Position numbers and translations under genes: made by a program. The notes beneath the pieces are model-generated. The model had not been told where the DNA came from, did not search any database, and saw only the letters and a program-made list of their open reading frames with translations. Below, piece by piece: positions 20,176-30,856 of a stretch of DNA of 64,000 nucleotides (positions within the stretch are counted from its first letter, which is position 1; the number at the start of each line of letters is the position of its first letter). Source of the stretch: Pseudomonas fluorescens (lineage in GTDB: Bacteria; Pseudomonadota; Gammaproteobacteria; Pseudomonadales; Pseudomonadaceae); the NCBI RefSeq assembly GCF_001623525.1, contig NZ_CP015225.1:1488001-1552000 (forward strand), read 5' to 3'.

Positions 20176-21156
20176 TTATGCCTGGAACCAATCCCGGCGC
20201 TCATCCAGCGTGTGATGGATCAGCTCACGAAGCATCTGCACCTCTGGCGAGCCTTCGGCCTGGACACTGACGGCCATCCACAAGTGCCGCTGCATCGACA
20301 AGCCGAACACTTGCGGCAACGCCACCAGGCCTCGGTCGAAACGGCTCATGTACTGCGGCAACAGGCCGATGCAGGCGCTGCAGCGAATCATTTCCAGCAT
20401 CAGTTCGTAGGATTGCACCTGCACCACACCGGCCCGGCGTTGTTCTATCAGGGCGTTCCACGGGGCGAAGCCGTCCACGTGTCGGTCCGCCTGCCATTGC
20501 ACCAGCATGTAATCGTTCAGGTCGTCCAGGCAGTCCGGGCGCGTGGCCGAGCGGGAGTAACGCTTGGCAATGTGCGGCACATAGTCCAGCCGCGCCAGGC
20601 GATCCGCAGGCAACGTGGCGAAACTCGGCCCCGGCCCCAACGTGTGGGCATCGCTCAACCACAGCACCAGGTCGGCGCTGACGGCTTGCAGCGCCAGGTC
20701 ACTGTCCAGGGTAATGATCTGCAGTCGCACGCGGGCATTGCGCCGTAGCAACGAGATCAAGTCGCGTCCCAGGATGTCATGCAGAATCGACTCGGCCACG
20801 GCGAGGCGAATCATGGGTTGTTCGTTCAACGGCGGCGCGCTTTCGTGGGCCAGAGTAATCAATCGCGCCTGCAACTGCCGGCCTTCGCGAGTGAGGGTCA
20901 AGGCGCTGCCCTGGAAGCTGAACAACGAGCGTTGCAGCCGCGTCTCCAACTGCGCCAACTGCTTGCGCAGAAAGGTTGCCTTGACGTTGAGGCTACGGGC
21001 CGCTTGCATGAAGCAGCCGCAACGGGCACTGACCAGGAAACACTGCGCCACCTGCGGTTCAATACCGCCGGCCAATGTCAGCCAGGGATCGGGGACACGC
21101 AACGGCGTGCGGTATGCGGTGACAGCCTGGCGTCCTGCGGGCTCGGTGAAGGTCAT
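20176..21156 (-). CDS. LysR-type transcriptional regulator
   Basis: From ATG 21156 (GGGAG box 7 bases upstream) the product is 326 residues. The N-terminal winged helix is recognisable (FLVSARCGCFMQAARSLNV, then LRKQLAQLETRLQRSLF), though divergent and preceded by about 35 extra residues. The C-terminal half is a periplasmic-binding-protein-like effector domain. It is separated from the ppiC-type gene by a REPIN but runs in the same direction. The P. aeruginosa pdt locus, as I recall it, also ends with a LysR gene, so it may regulate the envelope cluster. Confidence 0.82.
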   Translation of the reverse strand: MTFTEPAGRQAVTAYRTPLRVPDPWLTLAGGIEPQVAQCFLVSARCGCFMQAARSLNVKATFLRKQLAQLETRLQRSLFSFQGSALTLTREGRQLQARLITLAHESAPPLNEQPMIRLAVAESILHDILGRDLISLLRRNARVRLQIITLDSDLALQAVSADLVLWLSDAHTLGPGPSFATLPADRLARLDYVPHIAKRYSRSATRPDCLDDLNDYMLVQWQADRHVDGFAPWNALIEQRRAGVVQVQSYELMLEMIRCSACIGLLPQYMSRFDRGLVALPQVFGLSMQRHLWMAVSVQAEGSPEVQMLRELIHHTLDERRDWFQA

Positions 21157-21219
21157 GGGTGACTCCCTGTCGGTTGTACGAATACGTGGTGCTGCGCGAG
21201 TCTTCAGCACAAACACCCT

Positions 21220-21351
21220 GTGGCGAGGGAGCTTGCTCCCGCTGGGTTGCGCAGCAACCCCAAAAAGCTCTGCCGGGCTCTCACTGAAGGACTGCGGTCA
21301 GTTCGTGAGGGGGCTGCTGCGCAACCCAGCGGGAGCAAGCTCCCTCGCCAC
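21220..21351. repeat. REPIN, family A (copy 3)
   Basis: It lies between the LysR gene and the PpiC-type gene and separates the regulator from the envelope cluster. Confidence 0.92.
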
Positions 21352-21369
21352 AGGTCTGGTGTGAACGGT

Positions 21370-22314
21370 CTAAAGCCCCTCCTCCAGCACCTTGCTCAAC
21401 TGCGCGCCATCGATGCTCAATGTGGCCGTGTCGAGCATGCCGTCCAGGTAGGCCTTGGCGATCTGTTCCTGGCGCTGGGCGCGCAGGGCCTGGGTCAGGC
21501 GTTCGCGGACTTCGTCCAGGGTCGCTTCCCGGGCCGGCTGTTGATCGGTGAGCTTGATGACATGGAACCCTGCCGGGCTCTGCACCGGGTCCGATACCGC
21601 GCCGACCTTCAAGCGTGCCACCGCCTCACGCACCGGCGGGACCAGTTGCTGCAACGGCTGGTAACCGCTGTCACCGCCGCGTTCGGCACTGGTGCGGTCC
21701 TGGGAGAAACGGCTGGCCAGGGCGGCAAACTCGACAGGTGACGCCTGGGCCTTTTTACTCAGTTCCGACGCTTGCCGGCGCACCGCCTCTACGGTTTGCG
21801 GCTCGGTGGCTGCCAGGAAAATCTGGCTGACGCGGTACAACGCCGGTGCGGTCCAGTTGGCTTTCCCGGCGTCGTAAGCCTGCTTCAGTTCTTCGTCACT
21901 GGGATACCCGGCCGGCACCTGACTGACCGACTGCATGTAGTCGCGAAACACAATCTGCTCAGCCGCCGCTCGCGTCTGCCGCTGCACCTCGGGCCGCTCG
22001 CGCCAACCCTGGGCGTCGGCTTGCTCCAACACGGCCTTTTCCGCCAGGCGCGCACGGATCCAGCCTTCCAGTGCAGCGCGATTGCCACGCATTTGCTGGC
22101 GAACCTCCGGGGCCAGTGCGGCCAGCAAGGTCTTGAGCTCTTCGGGGCTGACCTGCTGGTTGCCCAGTCGGGCCAAACTCGGCGTGTCGGCCGAAACAAC
22201 GCTGGCGGTCTGTACCGCGGCGACCGGATCGCTGCCCGGCCGCAGGCCCAGCACCAGCGCCACGGCAATCAGCCCCAGTGCGGCGGCGCTGATGACGAAG
22301 GTCGGCTTTTTCAC
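21370..22314 (-). CDS. PpiC/parvulin-type peptidyl-prolyl isomerase, membrane-anchored
   Basis: A 314-residue protein with an N-terminal hydrophobic anchor (FVISAAALGLIAVALVLGL), a SurA_N-like helical segment (LARLGNQQVSPEELKTLLAA) and a parvulin domain at about 145-250 (YRVSQIFLAA; FAALASRFSQDRTSAERGGD; GAVSDPVQSPAGFHVIKL). It probably acts in the periplasm as a foldase for outer-membrane or secreted client proteins. Its ATG overlaps the YbjN-like stop by four bases, tying it to the tonB/tpsB cluster. Confidence 0.88.
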   Translation of the reverse strand: MKKPTFVISAAALGLIAVALVLGLRPGSDPVAAVQTASVVSADTPSLARLGNQQVSPEELKTLLAALAPEVRQQMRGNRAALEGWIRARLAEKAVLEQADAQGWRERPEVQRQTRAAAEQIVFRDYMQSVSQVPAGYPSDEELKQAYDAGKANWTAPALYRVSQIFLAATEPQTVEAVRRQASELSKKAQASPVEFAALASRFSQDRTSAERGGDSGYQPLQQLVPPVREAVARLKVGAVSDPVQSPAGFHVIKLTDQQPAREATLDEVRERLTQALRAQRQEQIAKAYLDGMLDTATLSIDGAQLSKVLEEGL

Positions 22315-22790
22315 GATGCGACGGCCTCCTCCGATGGCGCTTCGACGGGCTCGGCCGGGGTTTGCAGGTGCGCCGCGTTCTGGCTGTACTCACGCAGGTA
22401 GACAATGAACTCCTGCAACAGGCGGTCCCACAGCTCCAGGTGGCTGCGCAGATGATCGGCACTCACGCCCGCCGCAACCACGACGTCCATTTCCATCACC
22501 AGGAATTCGCCTTGCAGCGACAACCGGGCAAAGCGGCGCGAGGCGTTCCACAACGCTACCAACCCCACTGGCAACTCGCCCTGTACCCGCAAGGCACAAC
22601 TGAACGTGAAGTCCAGGTACTGGCCCGCTGTTGGCGCAGGATTACCCAAACGCACCGCGAAGCCGATGCCCTGGCTGGCACTGAGCAGCTGCACGATACC
22701 GTTCTGCTCGGTTTCATTGACCCGATAGCCCGCGGCCTGCAACCACTCGGTCAGGGATTTTGCACCAACGTATTCAATCATTGAGGTCAT
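22311..22790 (-). CDS. YbjN-like / type III secretion chaperone-fold protein
   Basis: From ATG 22790, preceded by AAGGAAG, the product is 159 residues. The fold resembles YbjN/Tir-chaperone proteins: LTEWLQAAGYRVNETEQNG, then LDFTFSCALRVQG, and a helical tail. Such proteins are small cytoplasmic chaperone-like or regulatory factors. The C-terminus is acidic and disordered (PAEPVEAPSEEAVAS). Its position between a periplasmic coiled-coil protein and a foldase suggests a role in the same assembly path; the client is unknown. Confidence 0.65.
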   Translation of the reverse strand: MTSMIEYVGAKSLTEWLQAAGYRVNETEQNGIVQLLSASQGIGFAVRLGNPAPTAGQYLDFTFSCALRVQGELPVGLVALWNASRRFARLSLQGEFLVMEMDVVVAAGVSADHLRSHLELWDRLLQEFIVYLREYSQNAAHLQTPAEPVEAPSEEAVAS

Positions 22791-22812
22791 GTTCGCTTCT
22801 TCCTTGTTCTGT

Positions 22813-23460
22813 TCAGTGAGTGATCGAGGCCTGGGGGGCATCGAAACGGTTCTTGTAGAGATCATCGCCGAACCCCTGGGCCAGCTCTTCGAAACGTACC
22901 CGGGCCTTGGCCGCGAACGGCTGGCGGATCTTCACGATGTCGGTCACATCAATGGTTTCGTAGGCATGCAGCAGCGCCTTGGCGACTTCGTACATTTGCT
23001 GATTCTTGACCGAACATTGCTGCACTTGTGTGTCACGCTCGGTCAATTGCGCCTCCAGGCGAGCGCGCTCGGTCTCTTTGCCGCGAGCCAGGACCAGCAG
23101 CTCGTCGTAGGCTTTCTTGAACTTGCCCATTTGCTCGTTGCTGGCCGCCACCTGGGCCTGGGCCTGGCTTTGCAGGTTTTGCTGATGCCCAGCCAGTTGC
23201 TCATTCAGGCCCTGGGCCTTGGTCAGTTGTGCGGTCAATTGCTTGATCTGCGCCTGGGCTTCTCTGGCCTGGCTCTCGGCAGCCTGGCGAGCGGCGCTGG
23301 CCTGGGCCTGCTCGCTTTGCAGGGCCTGCAACTGGGCGGTGGTGCTGCGCAGTTGTGCCCGCAGCCGCTCTTCCAGGCCTTCGCCATGAGCCACGCCACT
23401 GAGCAGCAGGCCCAGCACCAATAACGCGGCCGGGCATGGGTATTTGGCTCGCCTTTTCAT
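22813..23460 (-). CDS. Periplasmic coiled-coil protein of the tonB/tpsB cluster
   Basis: A 215-residue protein with a signal peptide (PAALLVLGLLLSGVAHG) and a long heptad region, about residues 30-140, very rich in Gln, Ala and Glu (LRAQLRSTTAQLQALQSEQA). It ends in a short globular tail containing KIRQPFAAKARVRFEELAQG. I know no function. Coiled coils of this type often span the periplasm or scaffold envelope complexes. It lies 15 bp downstream of the porin-like gene and 22 bp upstream of the YbjN-like gene, clearly in the same operon. Confidence 0.72.
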   Translation of the reverse strand: MKRRAKYPCPAALLVLGLLLSGVAHGEGLEERLRAQLRSTTAQLQALQSEQAQASAARQAAESQAREAQAQIKQLTAQLTKAQGLNEQLAGHQQNLQSQAQAQVAASNEQMGKFKKAYDELLVLARGKETERARLEAQLTERDTQVQQCSVKNQQMYEVAKALLHAYETIDVTDIVKIRQPFAAKARVRFEELAQGFGDDLYKNRFDAPQASITH

Positions 23461-23475
23461 GAGGCCTCCCTGCGC

Positions 23476-25173
23476 TTAGAAGCGCGTGTTGATTTCAAGC
23501 TGCAAGACATCGATGTCGTACGGCGCGCCGTACACCGCTTCGGAACTCAACCAGCGACCGGTGGCGAAGACGTTGCTCGCCAGGCCATAGTTGCCACCCA
23601 GGAAATAACCCTTGGCGTTGGTGCCCCCCAGATGGAATGACGAATCGTTGAAGCCGTCCGGCAAGGCATCGGGCTGGATGTACTTGTAGCCGGCGAACAG
23701 GTTCCAGTCGCCCTCGCGCTTGAGCTCCAGCGAGTTGCCAAGGGTGAACTGGAGCATCCAGGCGTTGGCGCCGCTTTCCACCTCGCCATTGCTGTCCAGG
23801 TTGTTGGCGAACTGCCCCGCGGAGCGCTTGCGCATCTCGCCTTCGTCGTAGCCCAAGTTGTGGACGTAGTGGGCCTGGCTGCGCAGTTTCAGGTCTTCGG
23901 GAAGATCGGTGTCCAAGGCCAGATTCAGGTCCAGCAGGTTGAATTCCGAGGCCAGGCCGACGTATTGCGGCTGTGGCGTGGTGGACGGGTTGAGGGGATT
24001 GGGCGTGATGTCGCGCAACAGGAACACGGTGTTGCCCTTTTGCATGAACGCAACGCGTGAACCGTCGCTGTCGCAGCCTGGATCACCGACCCAAGGCTGG
24101 CACGGCGAAGAGCGCTGGCCTTCGATGTCGTCGAAGCGGTAATAGGCCATGGCCCCCTTGATCCGGTTACTGTCGTTGATGGCCCAGTTGGCCCCCAGTT
24201 GCGCGCCGTACAGCCACTTGTTGTCGCTCTCTTCCTTGTCGCTGCCATTGCTGGTGCTGGTGTCGTTGGTGTACTCCACCGGGAACGCGCCAACAGTACC
24301 GAACACGCCCCAATCCTGATTGAGCTTGTGGTTGAAGTTCGCCGCCACACCGTCGAAGTTCAGGTCACCGGAATACAACAGGTCGGTGGAGAAGAACGGG
24401 TTGGCGAAACGCCCGCCGGTGAGGGTCAATTCGTCCGAAGGCTTCCAGGTCAGGTAGCCCTGGTCGAGCCAGATGTCTTTCTTGCCAAAGCCACCACCGA
24501 GGGTCTGAGTGGTGGACACCGGGTTGTTGTCCGAGCCGGTGCCGATGCGGATACCCGCCGTCCATTGCGGGGCAATCACGGCCTTCATGCCCAGGCGTGC
24601 GCGCAGGCGGAACAGGTTCTCGCGGTCTTCACGGGTATTGAGCAACGGCGGCAGGCTGGAGCTGCTGTTGGGGTTGACGTCGTAGGGCCCCTTGTCATTG
24701 AGCCGGGCGAAGTCGACGATTTCGTTGCTGTTGGTGCCCGAGTAATAGCGCGACTCATCCCGCAGGCGAATGTCGCCGTCAAAACTGATGCGCGAAACCC
24801 AGTCCGGGAAAGTATTGGGTTGGGCCCAGTTTTCCTGCTTGGCGGTGGCCATGACTTCAGCCTTGACCTGGTCGCGGATCTGCTCACGCACGATGTTCGG
24901 CACGTATTGCACCCGCACGTCCCCCGGCGCACCGGCCGGCGCTGCGGCAACCGCCGTGGCCGCCTGGCGGGCCTGCACGGCTTCCCGTTCGGCCTGGGCA
25001 ATCAGGCCGTCGGCCTGCTCCTGCTTCAATACGCCCTGCTGCACCAGCAGGCGGATCAGATTGATCGTGGCGTTTTCCGAAGGCGCCGGGGCGGCCAACG
25101 AGTGCCCGGACAGGCCCAGAACGATCAGGCCGACTGCCCACGACAATCGATTCACATTGGAAATCATCTGCAC
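23476..25173 (-). CDS. Putative outer-membrane porin
   Basis: A 565-residue protein with a signal peptide (LIVLGLSGHSLAAPAPSE), a short helical segment (LLVQQGVLKQEQADGLIAQA) and then a beta-rich barrel with alternating aromatic strands, ending NTRF with the C-terminal Phe typical of outer-membrane proteins. Annotated relatives are called putative porins. Cargo is unknown. It follows tonB by 33 bp. It lacks TonB-dependent-receptor plug features, so it is unlikely to be gated by TonB in the usual way. Confidence 0.8.
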   Translation of the reverse strand: MQMISNVNRLSWAVGLIVLGLSGHSLAAPAPSENATINLIRLLVQQGVLKQEQADGLIAQAEREAVQARQAATAVAAAPAGAPGDVRVQYVPNIVREQIRDQVKAEVMATAKQENWAQPNTFPDWVSRISFDGDIRLRDESRYYSGTNSNEIVDFARLNDKGPYDVNPNSSSSLPPLLNTREDRENLFRLRARLGMKAVIAPQWTAGIRIGTGSDNNPVSTTQTLGGGFGKKDIWLDQGYLTWKPSDELTLTGGRFANPFFSTDLLYSGDLNFDGVAANFNHKLNQDWGVFGTVGAFPVEYTNDTSTSNGSDKEESDNKWLYGAQLGANWAINDSNRIKGAMAYYRFDDIEGQRSSPCQPWVGDPGCDSDGSRVAFMQKGNTVFLLRDITPNPLNPSTTPQPQYVGLASEFNLLDLNLALDTDLPEDLKLRSQAHYVHNLGYDEGEMRKRSAGQFANNLDSNGEVESGANAWMLQFTLGNSLELKREGDWNLFAGYKYIQPDALPDGFNDSSFHLGGTNAKGYFLGGNYGLASNVFATGRWLSSEAVYGAPYDIDVLQLEINTRF

Positions 25174-25206
25174 ACAACTCCTGTTGGCAAACTTTCAAAT
25201 AGTCGG

Positions 25207-25911
25207 TTAACCCGGCCGCCGTCCCTGCAAGGACAGGCGCACGGGTAAAGTCAGGGAGGCCGGTGGCCGTTCACTCAAATGGGGTGCGGCACGCAGGGCG
25301 GAAATCACTTGTTCGTCCACCTGCGGGTTGCCGCTGGACTTGACCAGCTCGACCCGGGTGATTTCGCCCACGGCACTGAGCCAGACATCGGCCTGCAGCG
25401 AGAACGCCAGGCTGCGCAGGTCAGGGTTTTCCCGCAGCAAGCGCTGGAAGGTGAACGCCAGGAACTGGCTGTAAGTGCCATTGCCGAGGCGTCCGCCCCC
25501 TGCCCCGGCCATGCCACCGCCCTTGCCGGCACCGATGTTGAAGGCGTCATTGCCGGACTGGGCATCGCCGTCCATCTGCATCGGATTCGCCAGGTCATCG
25601 ACTGGCGACGGCGGTGCCTCTTCCTCGGGCTTGACCTCTTCGGGCTCCGGGGTCGGTTCTGGCTCGACCACCTTCTCCTCGACCTGAGGCTCCGGCTCCT
25701 TGGGTTTCTCCGGCGGTGGTGGGGGCGGAGGCGGCAACGGGATGATGGTCGGCACCTTCGGTGCTTCACGGCGCACGCCACTCATGTCGTTGGCCCACTG
25801 CCACAGCAGCCAGGCCGCGACGGCGCCCAGCAGCAGGCCGGCGGCCCACTTGAGCAGGCGCAGCGGCGAAGTCTTCACCGGGGGCGGATCGATGGGAAGT
25901 CTGGCGGTCAT
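25207..25911 (-). CDS. tonB: Energy transducer TonB
   Basis: A 234-residue protein with an N-terminal membrane anchor (LLKWAAGLLLGAVAAWLLW), a Pro/Glu-rich spacer (PLPPPPPPPPEKPKEPEPQ, then EEKVVEPEPTPEPE) and a C-terminal TonB domain (AVGEITRVELVKSSGNPQVD, then VISALRAAP). It carries proton-motive energy from ExbBD to the outer membrane. Its ATG lies two bases after the exbD stop. As a dedicated TonB next to a TpsB transporter, it may serve this cluster instead of iron uptake. Confidence 0.93.
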   Translation of the reverse strand: MTARLPIDPPPVKTSPLRLLKWAAGLLLGAVAAWLLWQWANDMSGVRREAPKVPTIIPLPPPPPPPPEKPKEPEPQVEEKVVEPEPTPEPEEVKPEEEAPPSPVDDLANPMQMDGDAQSGNDAFNIGAGKGGGMAGAGGGRLGNGTYSQFLAFTFQRLLRENPDLRSLAFSLQADVWLSAVGEITRVELVKSSGNPQVDEQVISALRAAPHLSERPPASLTLPVRLSLQGRRPG

Positions 25912-25913
25912 GA

Positions 25914-26339
25914 TCAGCCCCGGCTCGGTTTGCCGGTCACCAGACCGACCTGGGACAGTTCCAGGCGCCGCAAGAGGTCTAGCACTTCAATGACTTTCTG
26001 GTACTGCACCGTCGCGTCGCCGCGCACGATCACCGGGAAGTCCGGGCTCTGGGCCTTTTCGATGCGCAGGCGCTCTTCCAACTCGACCAGGGTCACCGGA
26101 TAGGCATCGAGGAAAACCTGCCCGCCGTCGTTCACCGAAATCGCCTTGGTCTTGGCTTCGGACAACGACACCGAGGCACTGGCCTTGGGCAGGTTGATCT
26201 GGATACCCGACACCTGAGCCGTGGCGGTGAGGATGAACATCACCAGCACCACCATGAGCACATCCACCAGCGGTGTGATGTTGATGCTGTCGACTGCGGC
26301 ATCATCGTCGTCATCATGTGAGGCGTTTACGCTAGCCAT
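25914..26339 (-). CDS. exbD: ExbD-family biopolymer transport protein
   Basis: From ATG 26339 (GAGGAAA box) the product is 141 residues with one N-terminal membrane helix (NITPLVDVLMVVLVMFILTA) bearing the essential Asp in PLVDV. A periplasmic domain follows (GGQVFLDAYPVTLVELEERL; VIVRGDATVQYQKVIEVLD). It forms the proton channel with ExbB. An Asp-rich stretch (SHDDDDDAAVD) precedes the membrane helix. It starts about 10 bp after the ExbB-fusion stop. Confidence 0.93.
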   Translation of the reverse strand: MASVNASHDDDDDAAVDSINITPLVDVLMVVLVMFILTATAQVSGIQINLPKASASVSLSEAKTKAISVNDGGQVFLDAYPVTLVELEERLRIEKAQSPDFPVIVRGDATVQYQKVIEVLDLLRRLELSQVGLVTGKPSRG

Positions 26340-26349
26340 GGCGATTTCC

Positions 26350-28149
26350 TCAGGCCGGAACGGACGATGGGGCGTGATGATTGCGCCGATGCGCCGCTTC
26401 ACCGGACTGGCCTTCGCCGTGCATCTCCGCCAGGCGCGTGATGAACTCGTCGACGAACACGCGCATGTCGGCGCTGACTTCCTTGTTACGGGTGATCAGG
26501 CGGTTGTAGCCAAACAGTGCAGGGATCGCGACGAACAGCCCCATCGCAGTGGCGAGCAATGCCGCGGCCATGCCCGGGGCAATGGCGTTGATGTTCACGT
26601 CACCGGCCATGGCCGTGCCGAGGAACACCACCATAATCCCCAGCACGGTGCCAAGCAGGCCGATGTACGGGCCGCCGGCAATGGCGTTGGACAGGGTCGA
26701 GAGCTTCGAGCTGAGCTGCTGGTTTTCCCGGGTACGCACGCCGTCCATGGAACAGCGGATCGCTTCGATGGTGGCCGCCGACACCGACGAAGTGTCGGCG
26801 CCTTGCTCGCGACGGGTGCGGATTTCCTTGACGGCCACCAGGTATAAGCGCCACAGCGATGAATGTTGCAGGCGCTGGGCGAGGTCCTGGTCGTCGGCGA
26901 ACATTTCCAGGCGCGTGCCGATCCTGGCGAATTGTTCACGGAAGGCTTCGTTGGCCGCGCTGAGACGGCTGACCATGCGGTTCTTGCGGATCATGATGAT
27001 CCACGACTGGAACATCATCAGCACCAGCACCCCGATGATCACCCAGGCGTCCATCGGCACGGCGTTGAGCAGGAAACCCAGGCTGCCGAAACCGAAGCCG
27101 GACTGCTCTTCATCGACGCCGTAGGCCACCAGTTTCGATTCGGCGCCCTGGGCATTGGCGTCAGCCAACAACAGTGGCGCCGGGCGGGCGACCTTGGACA
27201 GGCGCGCTTCGTCCATGGCCCCACCAAATGGCGCGAAGGCACCGGCGGACACGTCTGCGCCCAAGGCCATCGGCGAGTTGAACGCGGGCATCGCCACCGC
27301 CAGGCTCGCGGTTTCACGCCCGTTGACGTAGAGCACGACCCGGTCGCCCGAGGCGGTCAACGCCAGGTGCTGCCACTGGCCAGGATTCAGCGGCTGGGTC
27401 GAGACCGCACGCTGGTCATTGATCGCAACGAACGGCACACCCTGGTTCACGCCAATCAACAGGCTGGTGGTGGCTTCGCGACGGGCCAGGATGATCTGTT
27501 CGCCACTGGCCTGGTCCTGACGCAGCCAGGTACTGAAGGTGAACGCCGCACCGGCACTGTGTTGCAACGAAGGGCTGGCGGGCAACAGTAGCGGCTGGCC
27601 GTTGAACTGCAAGGCACGCCCGATCACGCCGTCGATGCTGACACCGGCTGCGCCCTGGGCATTGTTGCCGTAGGCCGTGGTATCCCGGGGCGGTACACCG
27701 GTGGCGCCTTCAAAGTGATACAACGCGGTGTAGTCCGGGTCGAAGGTCAACTGGCCGCTGCCTGTGGCCGGCGCCTTCTGGTTGCCGTAATACATCCACA
27801 TGTCCTGACGCTGACCGCCCTCCACATTGGGCACATCGACCCAGATCAGCGCCATGCCCATCAGCGGGTCGAAGCTTTCGATCTGGTGATTGAGCACGGT
27901 CTTGTCGTCGGCACTGACGAAGCGCAGGTCCGAGCCGTCTTCCTTGACCCCGTCGAAGGTGAAGTTGCCGGTGTGCAGGCGCACCAGCAACGCCGTGCGT
28001 CCCAAAGCCTGGGCGATGGCGGCGCCCTGGGGGGTGGTGTCCACCGAAATCTGTTTGCGATAGTGCCAATCGTCCTGCCACCAGGCATTGGCGGTCGCCG
28101 GAAGCACCAGCCCCAGGCAGATAAACAGGGATAACAGTAAGCGTTGCAT
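26350..28149 (-). CDS. exbB: DUF2341-LamG-ExbB/TolQ fusion protein
   Basis: From ATG 28149 (AGGAG 8 bases upstream; a second ATG lies two codons earlier) the product is 599 residues. It has a signal peptide (LLLSLFICLGLVLPATANA), a DUF2341 domain (WWQDDWHYRKQISVDTTPQG; MWMYYGNQKA), a LamG/concanavalin-like domain at about 180-340 (TFSTWLRQDQASGEQII; VVLYVNGRETASLAV), a membrane helix near 370, and a MotA/TolQ/ExbB core at about 430-580 (YIGLLGTVLGIMVVFLGTA). The result is an ExbB with a large periplasmic, possibly glycan-binding, front end. Ordinary ExbB is about 240 residues. Confidence 0.88.
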   Translation of the reverse strand: MQRLLLSLFICLGLVLPATANAWWQDDWHYRKQISVDTTPQGAAIAQALGRTALLVRLHTGNFTFDGVKEDGSDLRFVSADDKTVLNHQIESFDPLMGMALIWVDVPNVEGGQRQDMWMYYGNQKAPATGSGQLTFDPDYTALYHFEGATGVPPRDTTAYGNNAQGAAGVSIDGVIGRALQFNGQPLLLPASPSLQHSAGAAFTFSTWLRQDQASGEQIILARREATTSLLIGVNQGVPFVAINDQRAVSTQPLNPGQWQHLALTASGDRVVLYVNGRETASLAVAMPAFNSPMALGADVSAGAFAPFGGAMDEARLSKVARPAPLLLADANAQGAESKLVAYGVDEEQSGFGFGSLGFLLNAVPMDAWVIIGVLVLMMFQSWIIMIRKNRMVSRLSAANEAFREQFARIGTRLEMFADDQDLAQRLQHSSLWRLYLVAVKEIRTRREQGADTSSVSAATIEAIRCSMDGVRTRENQQLSSKLSTLSNAIAGGPYIGLLGTVLGIMVVFLGTAMAGDVNINAIAPGMAAALLATAMGLFVAIPALFGYNRLITRNKEVSADMRVFVDEFITRLAEMHGEGQSGEAAHRRNHHAPSSVPA

Positions 28150-28166
28150 GGACATGACTCCTGGGT

Positions 28167-29801
28167 TCAAAACGTCGCTTGCAGGTTGAAGTGCAGGCGC
28201 GATTCCTGTTTCGAGGTGTTCGGCCCTTCGAGCAGCGGATAGCCCCAATCGAGGCTGCCGGACAGCCATTTGCTCAGGCTCGCGCGGGTGCCGAGGCCGA
28301 CGCTGGCGAGGCTGTAGTCGGCTTCCTGATCGGGCAGTTCGTCGCGCAGGTACAACTGCGCGCCTTCGGCGAAGGCATAGAAACGCCACTCCTGGACGTA
28401 GCTGCCGAGGAATTTGGCGAGGGACGGTGTGCGCAGCTCCTGGGACAGCAGGTAACCGTCATCACCGGTGCGCTCGGCGGCCAGGTAGCCACGTACCGAG
28501 GTCGCGCCACCGGCAGAGAATTGTTCGTTGGAAACCAGTGGCCCGGAGGCGAGTTGGAAGGCGGCCTTGGAGGCGGTCTGCCAATCATTGGCGAAGGTGA
28601 AGGTGTAATTGCCGTCGCCCTTGAGTACGGCGAAGCTGGGGCTGGCGCGATAGCGCTTGTAGTCGAATTCTTCGTCGGAGCTGCCGTAGCCCAGCAGACT
28701 GCGGGTACCCGCCACCAGGCTCAGGCCGAGGCCCAACTGGCTGGTTTCGGTGTAGCGAAAGCCGTTGTAGGCGAAGGTGAATGGCGCGTACTTGAGCGGT
28801 GCCTTGTCGCTGGCGCCGCCGAGGTTGAGCTCCTCCTCGAAATCCTTGAAATCGACTCCGACGGAAAAGGTGTTGGCCCAGGTGCCGCTGGACGGCAGGG
28901 TGTAGATCGCCGAGACACCATAGGAATGACCTTTGCCCAACACATTGCTACCGCCCACCGTTGCCACGTTACTGTCGGATTGGTAACCCGAGAACTGCAC
29001 GCTCCAGCGTTCGCTCAGCGGCGCGGTGTAGGAGCCCGACCAGACCTTGGCATTCTCGGTGTCCTGGGGCGCGGTGAAGAAGGTCAGCGAAACGCTGTGG
29101 CCCAGTTGCCAGAGGTTGTTGTAGCCCAGGCTGGCGACGGTGCGCAGCTTCTCGGTGTCGGCGCTGTAGTCGTTGTTCACCCCCAGGCTGGCCTGCCAGG
29201 GGTCCTGGTCTTCGACTTGCAAATCCACGTCCATGGTGCCGGAGCGCTGGCCTTCGCGCACCAGCGGCATGACCTGGCGCCCCGGGGTTTTGTTAAGCAG
29301 CGCTAGTTCTGCCTGGACCTGGGCGAAATCGGGCACCTCGCCTTCCTTGAGCGCTGGCACGTCATCACGAATTTCGACGGGGGAATAATGCTTGGCCCCC
29401 ACCACCCGCACCCGGCCAATCTTGGTCTCGCTGACTTGCAGGTAGACGATGCCGTCTTCGACTTTCTGCTCTGGCAGTTCGACGAACACCGATTGATAAC
29501 CCCGGGCCTGATAGGCCTTCTGCAAGGCCTCCCGGGCACCTTCGATGTCGCTCAAGGCCTTTTGCGGGCCGAGGAACGGGTACACCGCTTCCTCGATGGC
29601 CCGGGCATCGAGCACGGTGTTGCCCCGCACGAAATACTCGTTCACGTCCACCAGGCGCGTCGGTGCCGCTTCGGCCTCCTGCCCTCCTTCTGCAGCGATT
29701 GCCGACGGCCCCCCGACCGCCAGCAGCAACCAGCCCCACAGCGCCGGCCGCGATTTGAAGAAATGCTCCACACCACCCCCTGAATTCAAAGTACGGCTCA
29801 A
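28167..29801 (-). CDS. pdtB: TpsB-type outer-membrane transporter (ShlB/FhaC/HecB family), PdtB-like
   Basis: A 544-residue protein with a signal peptide, POTRA-like periplasmic region (NEYFVRGNTVLDARAIEEAV; GYQSVFVELPEQKVEDGIVY) and a 16-strand Omp85/ShlB barrel with the conserved VRGY lid-loop motif near residue 433. TpsB proteins export one large TpsA exoprotein to the cell surface. No TpsA gene is in this window. The gene order (phdA-like, tpsB, exbB, exbD, tonB, ppi, LysR) matches the P. aeruginosa PA0690-PA0701 pdt locus as I recall it. Its start overlaps the upstream gene's stop by four bases. Confidence 0.85.
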   Translation of the reverse strand: MSRTLNSGGGVEHFFKSRPALWGWLLLAVGGPSAIAAEGGQEAEAAPTRLVDVNEYFVRGNTVLDARAIEEAVYPFLGPQKALSDIEGAREALQKAYQARGYQSVFVELPEQKVEDGIVYLQVSETKIGRVRVVGAKHYSPVEIRDDVPALKEGEVPDFAQVQAELALLNKTPGRQVMPLVREGQRSGTMDVDLQVEDQDPWQASLGVNNDYSADTEKLRTVASLGYNNLWQLGHSVSLTFFTAPQDTENAKVWSGSYTAPLSERWSVQFSGYQSDSNVATVGGSNVLGKGHSYGVSAIYTLPSSGTWANTFSVGVDFKDFEEELNLGGASDKAPLKYAPFTFAYNGFRYTETSQLGLGLSLVAGTRSLLGYGSSDEEFDYKRYRASPSFAVLKGDGNYTFTFANDWQTASKAAFQLASGPLVSNEQFSAGGATSVRGYLAAERTGDDGYLLSQELRTPSLAKFLGSYVQEWRFYAFAEGAQLYLRDELPDQEADYSLASVGLGTRASLSKWLSGSLDWGYPLLEGPNTSKQESRLHFNLQATF

Positions 29802-30409
29802 TTGCTTGCGGTCGATGTCGTGGCGTGCCGGGCCAGCCAGGTGTGCAAAAGCGCGAAGTTCAAGGAGAACTCCGGCATTTGCAGCAAGGCGCCACAGAAC
29901 ACTTCACCGATGATTTTCTGGATGAGCCGCACTGCCCGCGCGTCGCCCAGCAGTGTGGCGAGGTCTTTGCTCAGGACGTTGAAGCTCCAGACCTTCTGGT
30001 TCAGGTCCAGGCCGACGAACCAGCGAAACAGCAGGTTGTAGTTGAGTTGTTCGTAGAGTTGCTGCTCGCTGGGCACTGAATAGAGCAGTTGTAGCAAGAG
30101 GATATGCATGGCGGTTTGCGGTGCGATCAGCATCTGGGCGCCGGCATTCAGCCCCTGCAACACATCGCGATGGTCATCCAGCAGGTCGTCGATCTGCGGG
30201 CGTAGCAAAACCAGTGAATGGCCTTGCGGAATGTAGCTGGACACTTCCTTGAGCGCGACCTGCCAGTCATCCTGGGAAACAATCCAGACCCACGGCGCGC
30301 CGTAGCGATACACCGAGACCGGCTGCTTGCGCGCCGCCTCGACGATCTTCGACAGCCGCTGGTCAAGCTCCTGCATGCCCACTTTCGAATAACGTTCCAT
30401 AGTCCCCAT
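29798..30409 (-). CDS. phdA: PhdA-like protein: Phd-type N-terminus with transposase (DUF772-like) C-terminal domain
   Basis: From ATG 30409 (GGGAG box) the product is 203 residues. The first ~70 residues (ERYSKVGMQELDQRLSKIVE; VYRYGAPWVWIVSQDDW) resemble Phd/YefM antitoxins, minus the usual toxin-binding tail. Residues about 95-165 (LLLQLLYSVPSEQQLYEQ; NYNLLFRWFVGLDLNQKVW) match the N-terminal domain of IS5-type transposases, with no catalytic DDE part following. No terminal repeats or toxin gene flank it. It is the first gene of the cluster. In P. aeruginosa, PhdA (PA0691) is reported to limit phage-mediated lysis in biofilms; equivalence is inferred from position and domains. Confidence 0.75.
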   Translation of the reverse strand: MGTMERYSKVGMQELDQRLSKIVEAARKQPVSVYRYGAPWVWIVSQDDWQVALKEVSSYIPQGHSLVLLRPQIDDLLDDHRDVLQGLNAGAQMLIAPQTAMHILLLQLLYSVPSEQQLYEQLNYNLLFRWFVGLDLNQKVWSFNVLSKDLATLLGDARAVRLIQKIIGEVFCGALLQMPEFSLNFALLHTWLARHATTSTASN

Positions 30410-30856
30410 CGCCTCACTCCCGGCTTCGCGCCCCGGCTCCAAAACGACCTGAAAGGTCCCCTTGAACACGTCACACAGGCATGACGGGAATGGCGATGTG
30501 CTACCGAACTTTTGTCATGAAAGCTTCATTTTGGAGGGCAAGGAGGGGTGGGATCTTGTGGGAGTGTTCAACCAAGTGATGGGCGACACCGAACCCTGTG
30601 GCGAGGGAGCTTGCTCCCGTTGGGGCGCGACGCGGCCCCGGGACCTGCCGACGCGGTGTGTCAGGAAAATCCCTTGGGGGCCGCTGCGCAGCCCAGCGGG
30701 AGCAAGCTCCCTCGCCACGGGGCAATGAGTACCGGCCCTATCGCGACCAGGTCGCTCCCACAACAGATTCTCGGGTGTTCACGACAATGACGTCCACCGT
30801 CAATCTCCTAGTGTGGAAGCGAGCCTGCTCGCGATGAGGCCGCCAGGTTCCGCGGG
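30410..30856. other. Promoter region of the phdA/pdtB cluster with REPs
   Basis: No gene is supported in this stretch. It holds family-A REPIN copy 4 (30598-30718), single family-B REP halves near 30738-30763 and 30811-30838, and a weak Pho-box-like sequence (TTGTCAT, GAAA, GCTTCAT on the plus strand, 30512-30529). The space that holds pdtA in P. aeruginosa is empty of coding sequence. Confidence 0.6.
30598..30718. repeat. REPIN, family A (copy 4)
   Basis: It lies between the phdA-like gene and the transglutaminase gene, with a longer middle containing GCCGCTGCGCAGCCC as its inner arm. Confidence 0.92.

What the first reader, a model, noticed from the sequence alone, without database searches (positions are those of the whole stretch)
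20176..30409. pdt-like TPS/TonB cluster that lacks its exoprotein gene
Ten co-directional genes encode a TpsB outer-membrane transporter, its own ExbB-ExbD-TonB motor, a porin-like protein, a coiled-coil protein, a YbjN-like protein, a foldase, a LysR regulator, and a PhdA-like head gene, mostly with 4-base overlaps or gaps under 35 bp. TpsB export normally needs no TonB, and each TpsB has a TpsA partner. As I recall, P. aeruginosa has pdtA (TpsA) at the head of the matching locus. Here the space upstream of the phdA-like gene (30410-30856) contains only REP repeats. Either the TpsA is elsewhere, or the machine exports something else. This is the strongest candidate in the window for an undescribed system.
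Basis: partly seen in the sequence, partly recalled or inferred. Interest (0 to 1): 0.75.

Follow-up and report, generated by a model that had tools for sequence, protein, structure and literature searches.

The report
Split secretion locus with proton motor
The secretion cluster does have its giant exported protein, encoded far away in the same genome behind a matching promoter-like motif, and that protein's tail carries a conserved tag that may plug it into the cluster's own proton-driven motor.

Summary
The ten-gene cluster is real and matches the published P. aeruginosa order phdA-pdtB-exbB2-exbD2-tonB4-PA0696..PA0701. Its exoprotein is not missing. The genome has five TpsAs and five TpsBs; four pair locally, leaving this TpsB and a 4208-aa PdtA-like TpsA 0.77 Mb away, beside vreA/vreR- and hxc-like genes. 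In 149 genus genomes both orthologs occur in the same 48. A promoter-like motif derived from the pdtA and phdA upstream regions has no other exact copy in 6.9 Mb.

The ExbB is a DUF2341-LamG-ExbB fusion; of the 80 best relatives, 74 lie within about 10 kb of a TpsB or TpsA-like gene. TpsAs of such loci end in DUF3739, a variable linker and a strand-like tag, [VIFL][LI][TS]V[EQD]V[LI]G[FLY]G, not found in 53 other TpsA tails; in five genomes with an unlinked motor, exactly one readable TpsA carries it. My preferred, untested reading: the tag keeps the tail in the periplasm and docks it on TonB, so the motor acts on the exoprotein. The TPS/ExbBD association was noted in 2009; ten searches of an open-access library showed me neither the tag nor the motor's role. 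New variant of a known kind.

The parts
30503..30529 (-). promoter-like motif ATGAANNTTTCATGACANNNGTTCGGT upstream of phdA, only other exact copy upstream of pdtA (pho box / sigma-VreI type by analogy with PAO1)
   Evidence: PAO1 promoter analysis in passages of PMC4971064
29798..30409 (-). phdA-like gene (DUF772 transposase-type domain, weak Phd_YefM match below cut-off)
28167..29801 (-). tpsB / pdtB ortholog: POTRA_2 + ShlB barrel; no H1 plug-helix segment by eye in the alignment
26350..28149 (-). exbB fusion: signal peptide, DUF2341, LamG-like domain, MotA/TolQ/ExbB channel
25914..26339 (-). exbD
25207..25911 (-). tonB (TonB_2 C-terminal domain, Pro-rich spacer)
23476..25173 (-). Porin_5 gene: predicted 16-strand barrel without plug domain, N-terminal helices of low confidence with a conserved YVPE-type motif
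22813..23460 (-). coiled-coil-like periplasmic protein (PA0697-like by position)
22311..22790 (-). YbjN-family gene
21370..22314 (-). PpiC-type peptidyl-prolyl isomerase (foldase)
20176..21216 (-). LysR-type regulator

Best explanation
This is the transporter-and-motor half of a split Pdt two-partner secretion system. Its exoprotein is the 4208-aa PdtA ortholog at genome 746485-759111, 0.77 Mb away, next to vreA/vreR- and hxc-like genes. Shown by computation: partner identity by elimination, co-occurrence without exception in the genus sample, a shared promoter-like motif found only at the two sites, and a recurrent link between DUF2341-LamG-ExbB motors and TPS genes. Inferred: PdtB threads PdtA outward N-terminus first; DUF3739 and a variable linker reach the pore; the C-terminal strand tag stays in the periplasm and pairs, like a TonB box, with the TonB C-terminal domain, so that the ExbB-ExbD-TonB motor pulls on, holds or releases the surface-anchored exoprotein. 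PpiC would assist periplasmic handling, and Porin_5 would be an outer-membrane anchor or a second TonB contact. My confidence by step: partner identity about 0.95; motor belongs to the TPS machine about 0.9; tag docks on the motor about 0.4. The stated confidence is for the whole.
For: Five TpsA and five TpsB in the genome, four local pairs, one leftover of each. The leftover TpsA follows STN and FecR (VreA/VreR-like) and T2SS genes. 48 of 149 genus genomes have the TpsB ortholog and the same 48 the PdtA ortholog; 17 pairs within 25 kb on one strand, 18 farther apart on one contig, 13 on different contigs. The motif, derived from the two sites, has no third exact copy in 6.9 Mb and none for the pattern read backwards. 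Of the 80 best DUF2341-ExbB loci (of 338 candidates in a capped scan), 46 have TpsB and 28 more a TpsA-like ORF in the flank, 6 neither; 16 of those 34 loci without a flanking TpsB were followed up and all 16 genomes have a TpsB. Tag: 38 non-redundant of 49 tails of motor-locus TpsAs, total 932 bits against 375-413 in six shuffled sets; leave-one-out score 10 or more in 35 of 38; 21 other TpsA tails at most 2.3. Out of sample: 20 of 25 further TpsAs readable to the C-terminus, 8 tagged (11.6-32.4), 12 not (at most 3.5); exactly one readable tagged TpsA in each of five genomes whose motor locus had no linked TPS gene. 0 of 20 tails from 19 genomes without a detected motor (at most 4.9). Of the five own TpsAs only PdtA is tagged. 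By eye, 13 motor-locus TpsB N-termini carry no conserved TonB-box-like motif.
Against: No interaction was measured or modelled; the likeness of the tag to a TonB box is by pattern and recalled. Tagged TpsAs probably form one DUF3739 lineage (not tested by a tree), so tag and motor may go together by descent. Porin_5 also has a conserved periplasmic motif and is a rival TonB partner. Three of 38 training tails score below 10 in leave-one-out (-1.1, 1.0, 5.6). The motif search was restricted to the part after the end of DUF3739, because a first run found DUF3739 itself. One control protein scores 11.8 far inside, 1229 residues from its end, and motor TpsAs up to 14.1 outside the tail, so the score alone is not specific within 2500-4000 residues. 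Of the five test genomes, G412, G543 and G544 have a single TpsA, so 'exactly one' is a real choice only in G542 and G545, where 1 and 2 further TpsAs were unreadable. In P. aeruginosa, transposon mutants in PA0690, PA0692, PA0695 and PA0696 were as virulent in zebrafish as wild type under VreI overexpression (PMC2729926), so no role of the TonB homologue is shown there. Some genomes have more tagged TpsAs than motors found (G345: three).
Confidence: 0.6

Rival explanations
1. The Ton motor serves Porin_5 rather than the exoprotein: PdtA captures a phosphorus source outside and the porin imports it with TonB energy under phosphate starvation, functionally like HxuA/HxuB/HxuC of Haemophilus.
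Confidence: 0.2
2. The motor energises TpsB itself (gating or pulling through POTRA), the tag being only a stop signal that halts PdtA in the pore.
For: tpsB directly before exbB in 9 of 12 loci outside the genus; PdtB-type TpsBs lack the H1 plug segment (by eye).
Against: No conserved TonB-box-like motif in 13 motor-locus TpsB N-termini (by eye), and relatives without a motor (G139, G115, G022) lack H1 too; TPS export is otherwise TonB-independent (established knowledge).
Confidence: 0.2
3. The motor is a neighbour by co-regulation only and does cell-envelope or adhesion work unrelated to export.
For: The PUMA3 regulon also holds hxc genes; the exbB2-exbD2-tonB4 system is called uncharacterised (PMC7035377 passage).
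Against: Linkage recurs across phyla.
Confidence: 0.1

Closest known systems
PdtA/PdtB-PhdA-ExbB2-ExbD2-TonB4-PA0696..PA0701 of P. aeruginosa (PUMA3/sigma-VreI regulon)
   Same: Same gene content and order from phdA to lysR; pdtA beside vreAIR and hxc; both promoters carry a pho box and VreI elements in PAO1 (passages).
   Different: In the window's genome the locus is split 0.77 Mb apart. That the ExbB is a DUF2341-LamG fusion and that PdtA carries a C-terminal tag is not stated in the passages I saw; the 2014 PdtA paper (Faure et al.) was not available and is known to me only from reference lists.
HxuCBA of Haemophilus influenzae
   Same: TPS pair working with a TonB-dependent transporter (passage of PMC5422565).
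   Different: HxuC is a true TonB-dependent transporter; no dedicated motor in the operon; here no plugged receptor in the cluster.
Oar/PopC of Myxococcus xanthus
   Same: TonB-linked protein export across the outer membrane (start of abstract of PMC6434023).
   Different: Oar is a TonB-dependent transporter; here the transporter is an Omp85-type TpsB.
FhaB/FhaC of Bordetella
   Same: TpsA whose C-terminal prodomain matters (start of abstract of PMC8263021; periplasmic retention recalled).
   Different: Prodomain and proteolysis; no Ton motor that I know of (recalled).
OmpM1 of Veillonella
   Different: 17-18 % identity; no SLH domain reported by Pfam here.
TolQR / ExbBD motors with extra domains
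   Same: ExbB part closest to TolQ; DUF2341 named as an unexplained appendage (PMC12505986 passages).
   Different: Linked here to two-partner secretion, a term that paper does not use (0 occurrences).

Membership tests
Two-partner secretion (type Vb) | TpsB with POTRA_2 and ShlB-type barrel | tested here: met
   PF08479 62.9 bits, PF03865 80.3 bits, both over cut-off
Two-partner secretion (type Vb) | cognate TpsA with TPS domain | tested here: met
   PF05860 in the 4208-aa protein; both orthologs in the same 48 of 149 genomes
Two-partner secretion (type Vb) | export of the TpsA by this TpsB | not testable with these tools
   needs knockout and secretome
Pdt system of P. aeruginosa | gene order phdA-pdtB-exbB-exbD-tonB-porin-PA0697-YbjN-PpiC-LysR | tested here: met
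   against gene lists in PMC7035377 and PMC2729926 (passages); no gene between ppiC and lysR was assigned here (PA0700 in PAO1)
Pdt system of P. aeruginosa | pdtA directly upstream of phdA | tested here: not met
   pdtA is 0.77 Mb away; within 25 kb in 17 of 48 genus genomes
PUMA3 / sigma-VreI regulon | same promoter-like elements upstream of pdtA and phdA | tested here: met
   shared motif, two exact sites in the genome
PUMA3 / sigma-VreI regulon | transcription dependent on VreI and PhoB in this species | not testable with these tools
   shown in PAO1 only (passages)
Ton motor | ExbB-ExbD-TonB set | tested here: met
   PF01618, PF02472, PF13103 all over cut-off
TonB-dependent receptor | plugged barrel with TonB box as motor partner in the cluster | tested here: not met
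   no TBDT family among the ten proteins; model of Porin_5: 16 strands, no plug
TonB-box-bearing protein (PdtA tail) | binding of the TonB C-terminal domain | not testable with these tools
   only the conserved tag was shown

The most novel reading that the evidence does not exclude
A class of two-partner secretion in which the exoprotein itself is the motor's substrate: giant DUF3739 TpsA proteins keep a C-terminal TonB-box-like strand in the periplasm, and a dedicated DUF2341-LamG-ExbB / ExbD / TonB motor pulls on, tensions or releases them through TpsB using the proton-motive force. The TonB-like domain of VreA could read the same tag to report unexported PdtA to the sigma factor, which would be the missing inducing signal of PUMA3.
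Probability: 0.35. Interest if true: 0.88.

Novelty: new variant of a known kind. Interest (0 to 1): 0.62.

Why it matters
TPS export is taught as needing no energy source at the outer membrane. A recurrent proton-driven motor, tied to TPS genes from Pseudomonas to Verrucomicrobiota and matched by a tag on the exoprotein, makes it directly testable whether some giant surface proteins are mechanically held or moved by the cell. It also offers a context for the DUF2341 appendage on ExbB-like motors, a partner for the TonB4 system, and a candidate ligand for VreA.

Tried and rejected
Rejected: 'exoprotein lost' and 'exports something else'. Rejected as motor-specific: absence of the TpsB H1 helix, since relatives without a motor lack it too (by eye). 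The first unsupervised motif run on the last 130 residues found the end of DUF3739, not the tag; the run was repeated on the part after it. The vreA count printed is inflated by cross-matches with TonB and is not used. The porin model from one sequence was useless (pLDDT 32); the alignment model replaced it. No solved structure matched Porin_5 by sequence (best E 0.48). The ten paper searches (open-access PMC papers only) gave nothing on the tag or on the motor's role; I saw listings and passages and read no paper whole. P. aeruginosa's own PdtA tail was not checked by name.

Limits of the searches: one search scored only two candidates per genome and its list is cut, so its fusion count is a lower bound and 'motor-less' means none detected there.

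Rows dropped: L205 and L084 (longest frame was not the TpsA) before the count of 21; of those 21, 19 are non-redundant. The second L174 frame was left out of the motor set. 5 of 25 test pieces ran off the piece. Kept but doubtful: L241 (probably a wrong frame) and L221 (an ambiguous residue in the tail). In one search the linkage of TpsB 10.6-19 kb upstream in ten loci is inferred from coordinates; contig lengths confirm it only for L141 and L170.
Full report
Observation. Two corrections: the ExbB is a fusion with DUF2341 and a LamG-like domain, and the upstream gap is not only REP.

Where is the exoprotein? PF05860 finds five TpsAs in the genome, PF03865 five TpsBs. By coordinates four form local pairs (3.16, 3.72, 3.97, 5.81 Mb; frames of the 3.72 Mb pair). 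The leftovers are the window's TpsB and a TpsA at 746485-759111 of 4208 aa. Upstream of it lie an STN + TonB_2 protein (VreA-like), a FecR/DUF4880 protein (VreR-like), and secretin, ATPase and pseudopilin-like genes of a T2SS, as in the published PUMA3-hxc-pdtA arrangement (passages of PMC2729926 and PMC7035377). The sigma-factor frame between them was not tested.

Co-occurrence. Among 149 genus genomes the TpsB ortholog (bits 859 or more; next best 257) occurs in 48 and the PdtA ortholog (bits 470 or more; next best 60) in the same 48, none discordant; 17 pairs lie within 25 kb on one strand, 18 farther apart on one contig, 13 on different contigs, where linkage cannot be judged. Two pdtA copies look broken (G034, G108). 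So splitting is common in the genus and the exoprotein is kept.

Co-regulation. The upstream regions of phdA and pdtA share ATGAANNTTTCATGACANNNGTTCGGT. The pattern was derived from these two sites, so their match is by construction; that there is no third exact copy in 6.9 Mb, and none for the pattern read backwards, is the result. With up to 3 mismatches of the shorter core there are 14 more sites, the best with 2 mismatches at 721223-721242, against 4 in the reversed control. In PAO1 both promoters have a pho box and VreI -35/-10 elements (PMC4971064 passages).

The motor. Among 398 phylum genomes, DUF2341-type ExbB fusions were found in 13 besides the own one, one of them in the same genus and one cut off by a contig end (a lower bound, two candidates scored per genome). 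In 12 fetched loci outside the genus (11 genomes) exbD and tonB follow it, tpsB lies directly before it in 9, and in two more tpsB lies upstream of a TpsA gene that precedes exbB; the twelfth, G412, has its only TpsB and only TpsA on another contig. A capped search of named genomes with a 14-sequence alignment kept the best 80 of 338 relatives, Pseudomonas to Bradyrhizobium, Methylococcales and Verrucomicrobiota, many of them metagenome assemblies. Of the 80, 46 have TpsB in the flank, 28 more a TpsA-like ORF (some cut by contig ends or several kb from exbB), 6 neither, two of these cut off by the contig end; exbD in 79, tonB in 75, Porin_5 in 73. Of the 34 loci without a flanking TpsB, 16 were followed up: all 16 genomes have a TpsB. 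Full-length Porin_5 genes all lie in motor loci in a 249-genome sample (7 of 7; two further genomes have partial matches). The association of TPS with ExbBD and PA0696 was noted for several species in 2009; DUF2341 on ExbB-like motors was named as unexplained in 2025.

The tag. TpsAs of motor loci end in DUF3739 (found in the two C-terminal parts scanned), a variable linker, often Ala/Ser-rich, and a short strand-like motif 1-59 residues from the C-terminus. Numbers: 38 non-redundant tails of 49; 932 bits against 375-413 for six shuffled sets; leave-one-out 10 or more in 35 of 38; 21 other TpsA tails at most 2.3 in the last 100 residues, though one reaches 11.8 far inside. Test on 25 further TpsAs from 15 motor genomes, C-terminus readable in 20: 8 tagged, 12 not. 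In G412, G542, G543, G544 and G545, whose motor locus had no linked TPS gene and whose TpsAs lie on other contigs (contig lengths), exactly one readable TpsA is tagged. G412, G543 and G544 have only one TpsA; one further TpsA of G542 and two of G545 were unreadable. Twenty tails from 19 genomes without a detected motor: none, at most 4.9. The own PdtA has it at residues 4148-4157; the other four own TpsAs do not.

Limits. No protein-protein contact was tested. Tagged TpsAs are probably one lineage, so the correlation of tag and motor is not made of independent events. Some contig pairings are inferred. In P. aeruginosa single mutants in tpsA, tpsB, the tonB homologue and PA0696 showed no zebrafish phenotype, which neither supports nor excludes the model. 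Verdict: the 'missing exoprotein' is explained; the dedicated motor is real, recurrent and, in the passages I saw, without a shown function, and it now has a specific test.

Noticed in passing
window 29798-30409: The phdA-like protein matches the DUF772 transposase domain (over cut-off) and parts of IS1182/IS5 transposase models (below theirs) better than Phd_YefM, so the 'prevent-host-death' name may be misleading.
   Followed up: no
L011:1582-2280: VreA-like proteins join an STN domain to a TonB-type C-terminal domain in several taxa: 6 of 8 relatives scanned show both at E 0.01, 3 of 8 with both over the curated cut-off.
   Followed up: partly
genome 721223-721242 (-): A third, 2-mismatch copy of the pdtA/phdA promoter core about 10 kb before vreA.
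   Followed up: no
window, e.g. 30603 and 30698: 22 REP core palindromes in the window, two in the phdA upstream gap.
   Followed up: no
L143, L163, L166, L168-L171, L173, L174, L178, L179; L075: Two consecutive exbD-like genes in the motor locus of several betaproteobacterial relatives and of G504.
   Followed up: no
G345 (L093, L232, L234): Three tagged TpsAs with one motor locus found, suggesting that one motor may serve several exoproteins.
   Followed up: partly
L082, L083, L084: Second, small TpsB/TpsA pairs in Pseudomonas (TpsB about 33 % identical) without a motor nearby; two of the TpsAs end in Tyr-Cys-Asn.
   Followed up: no
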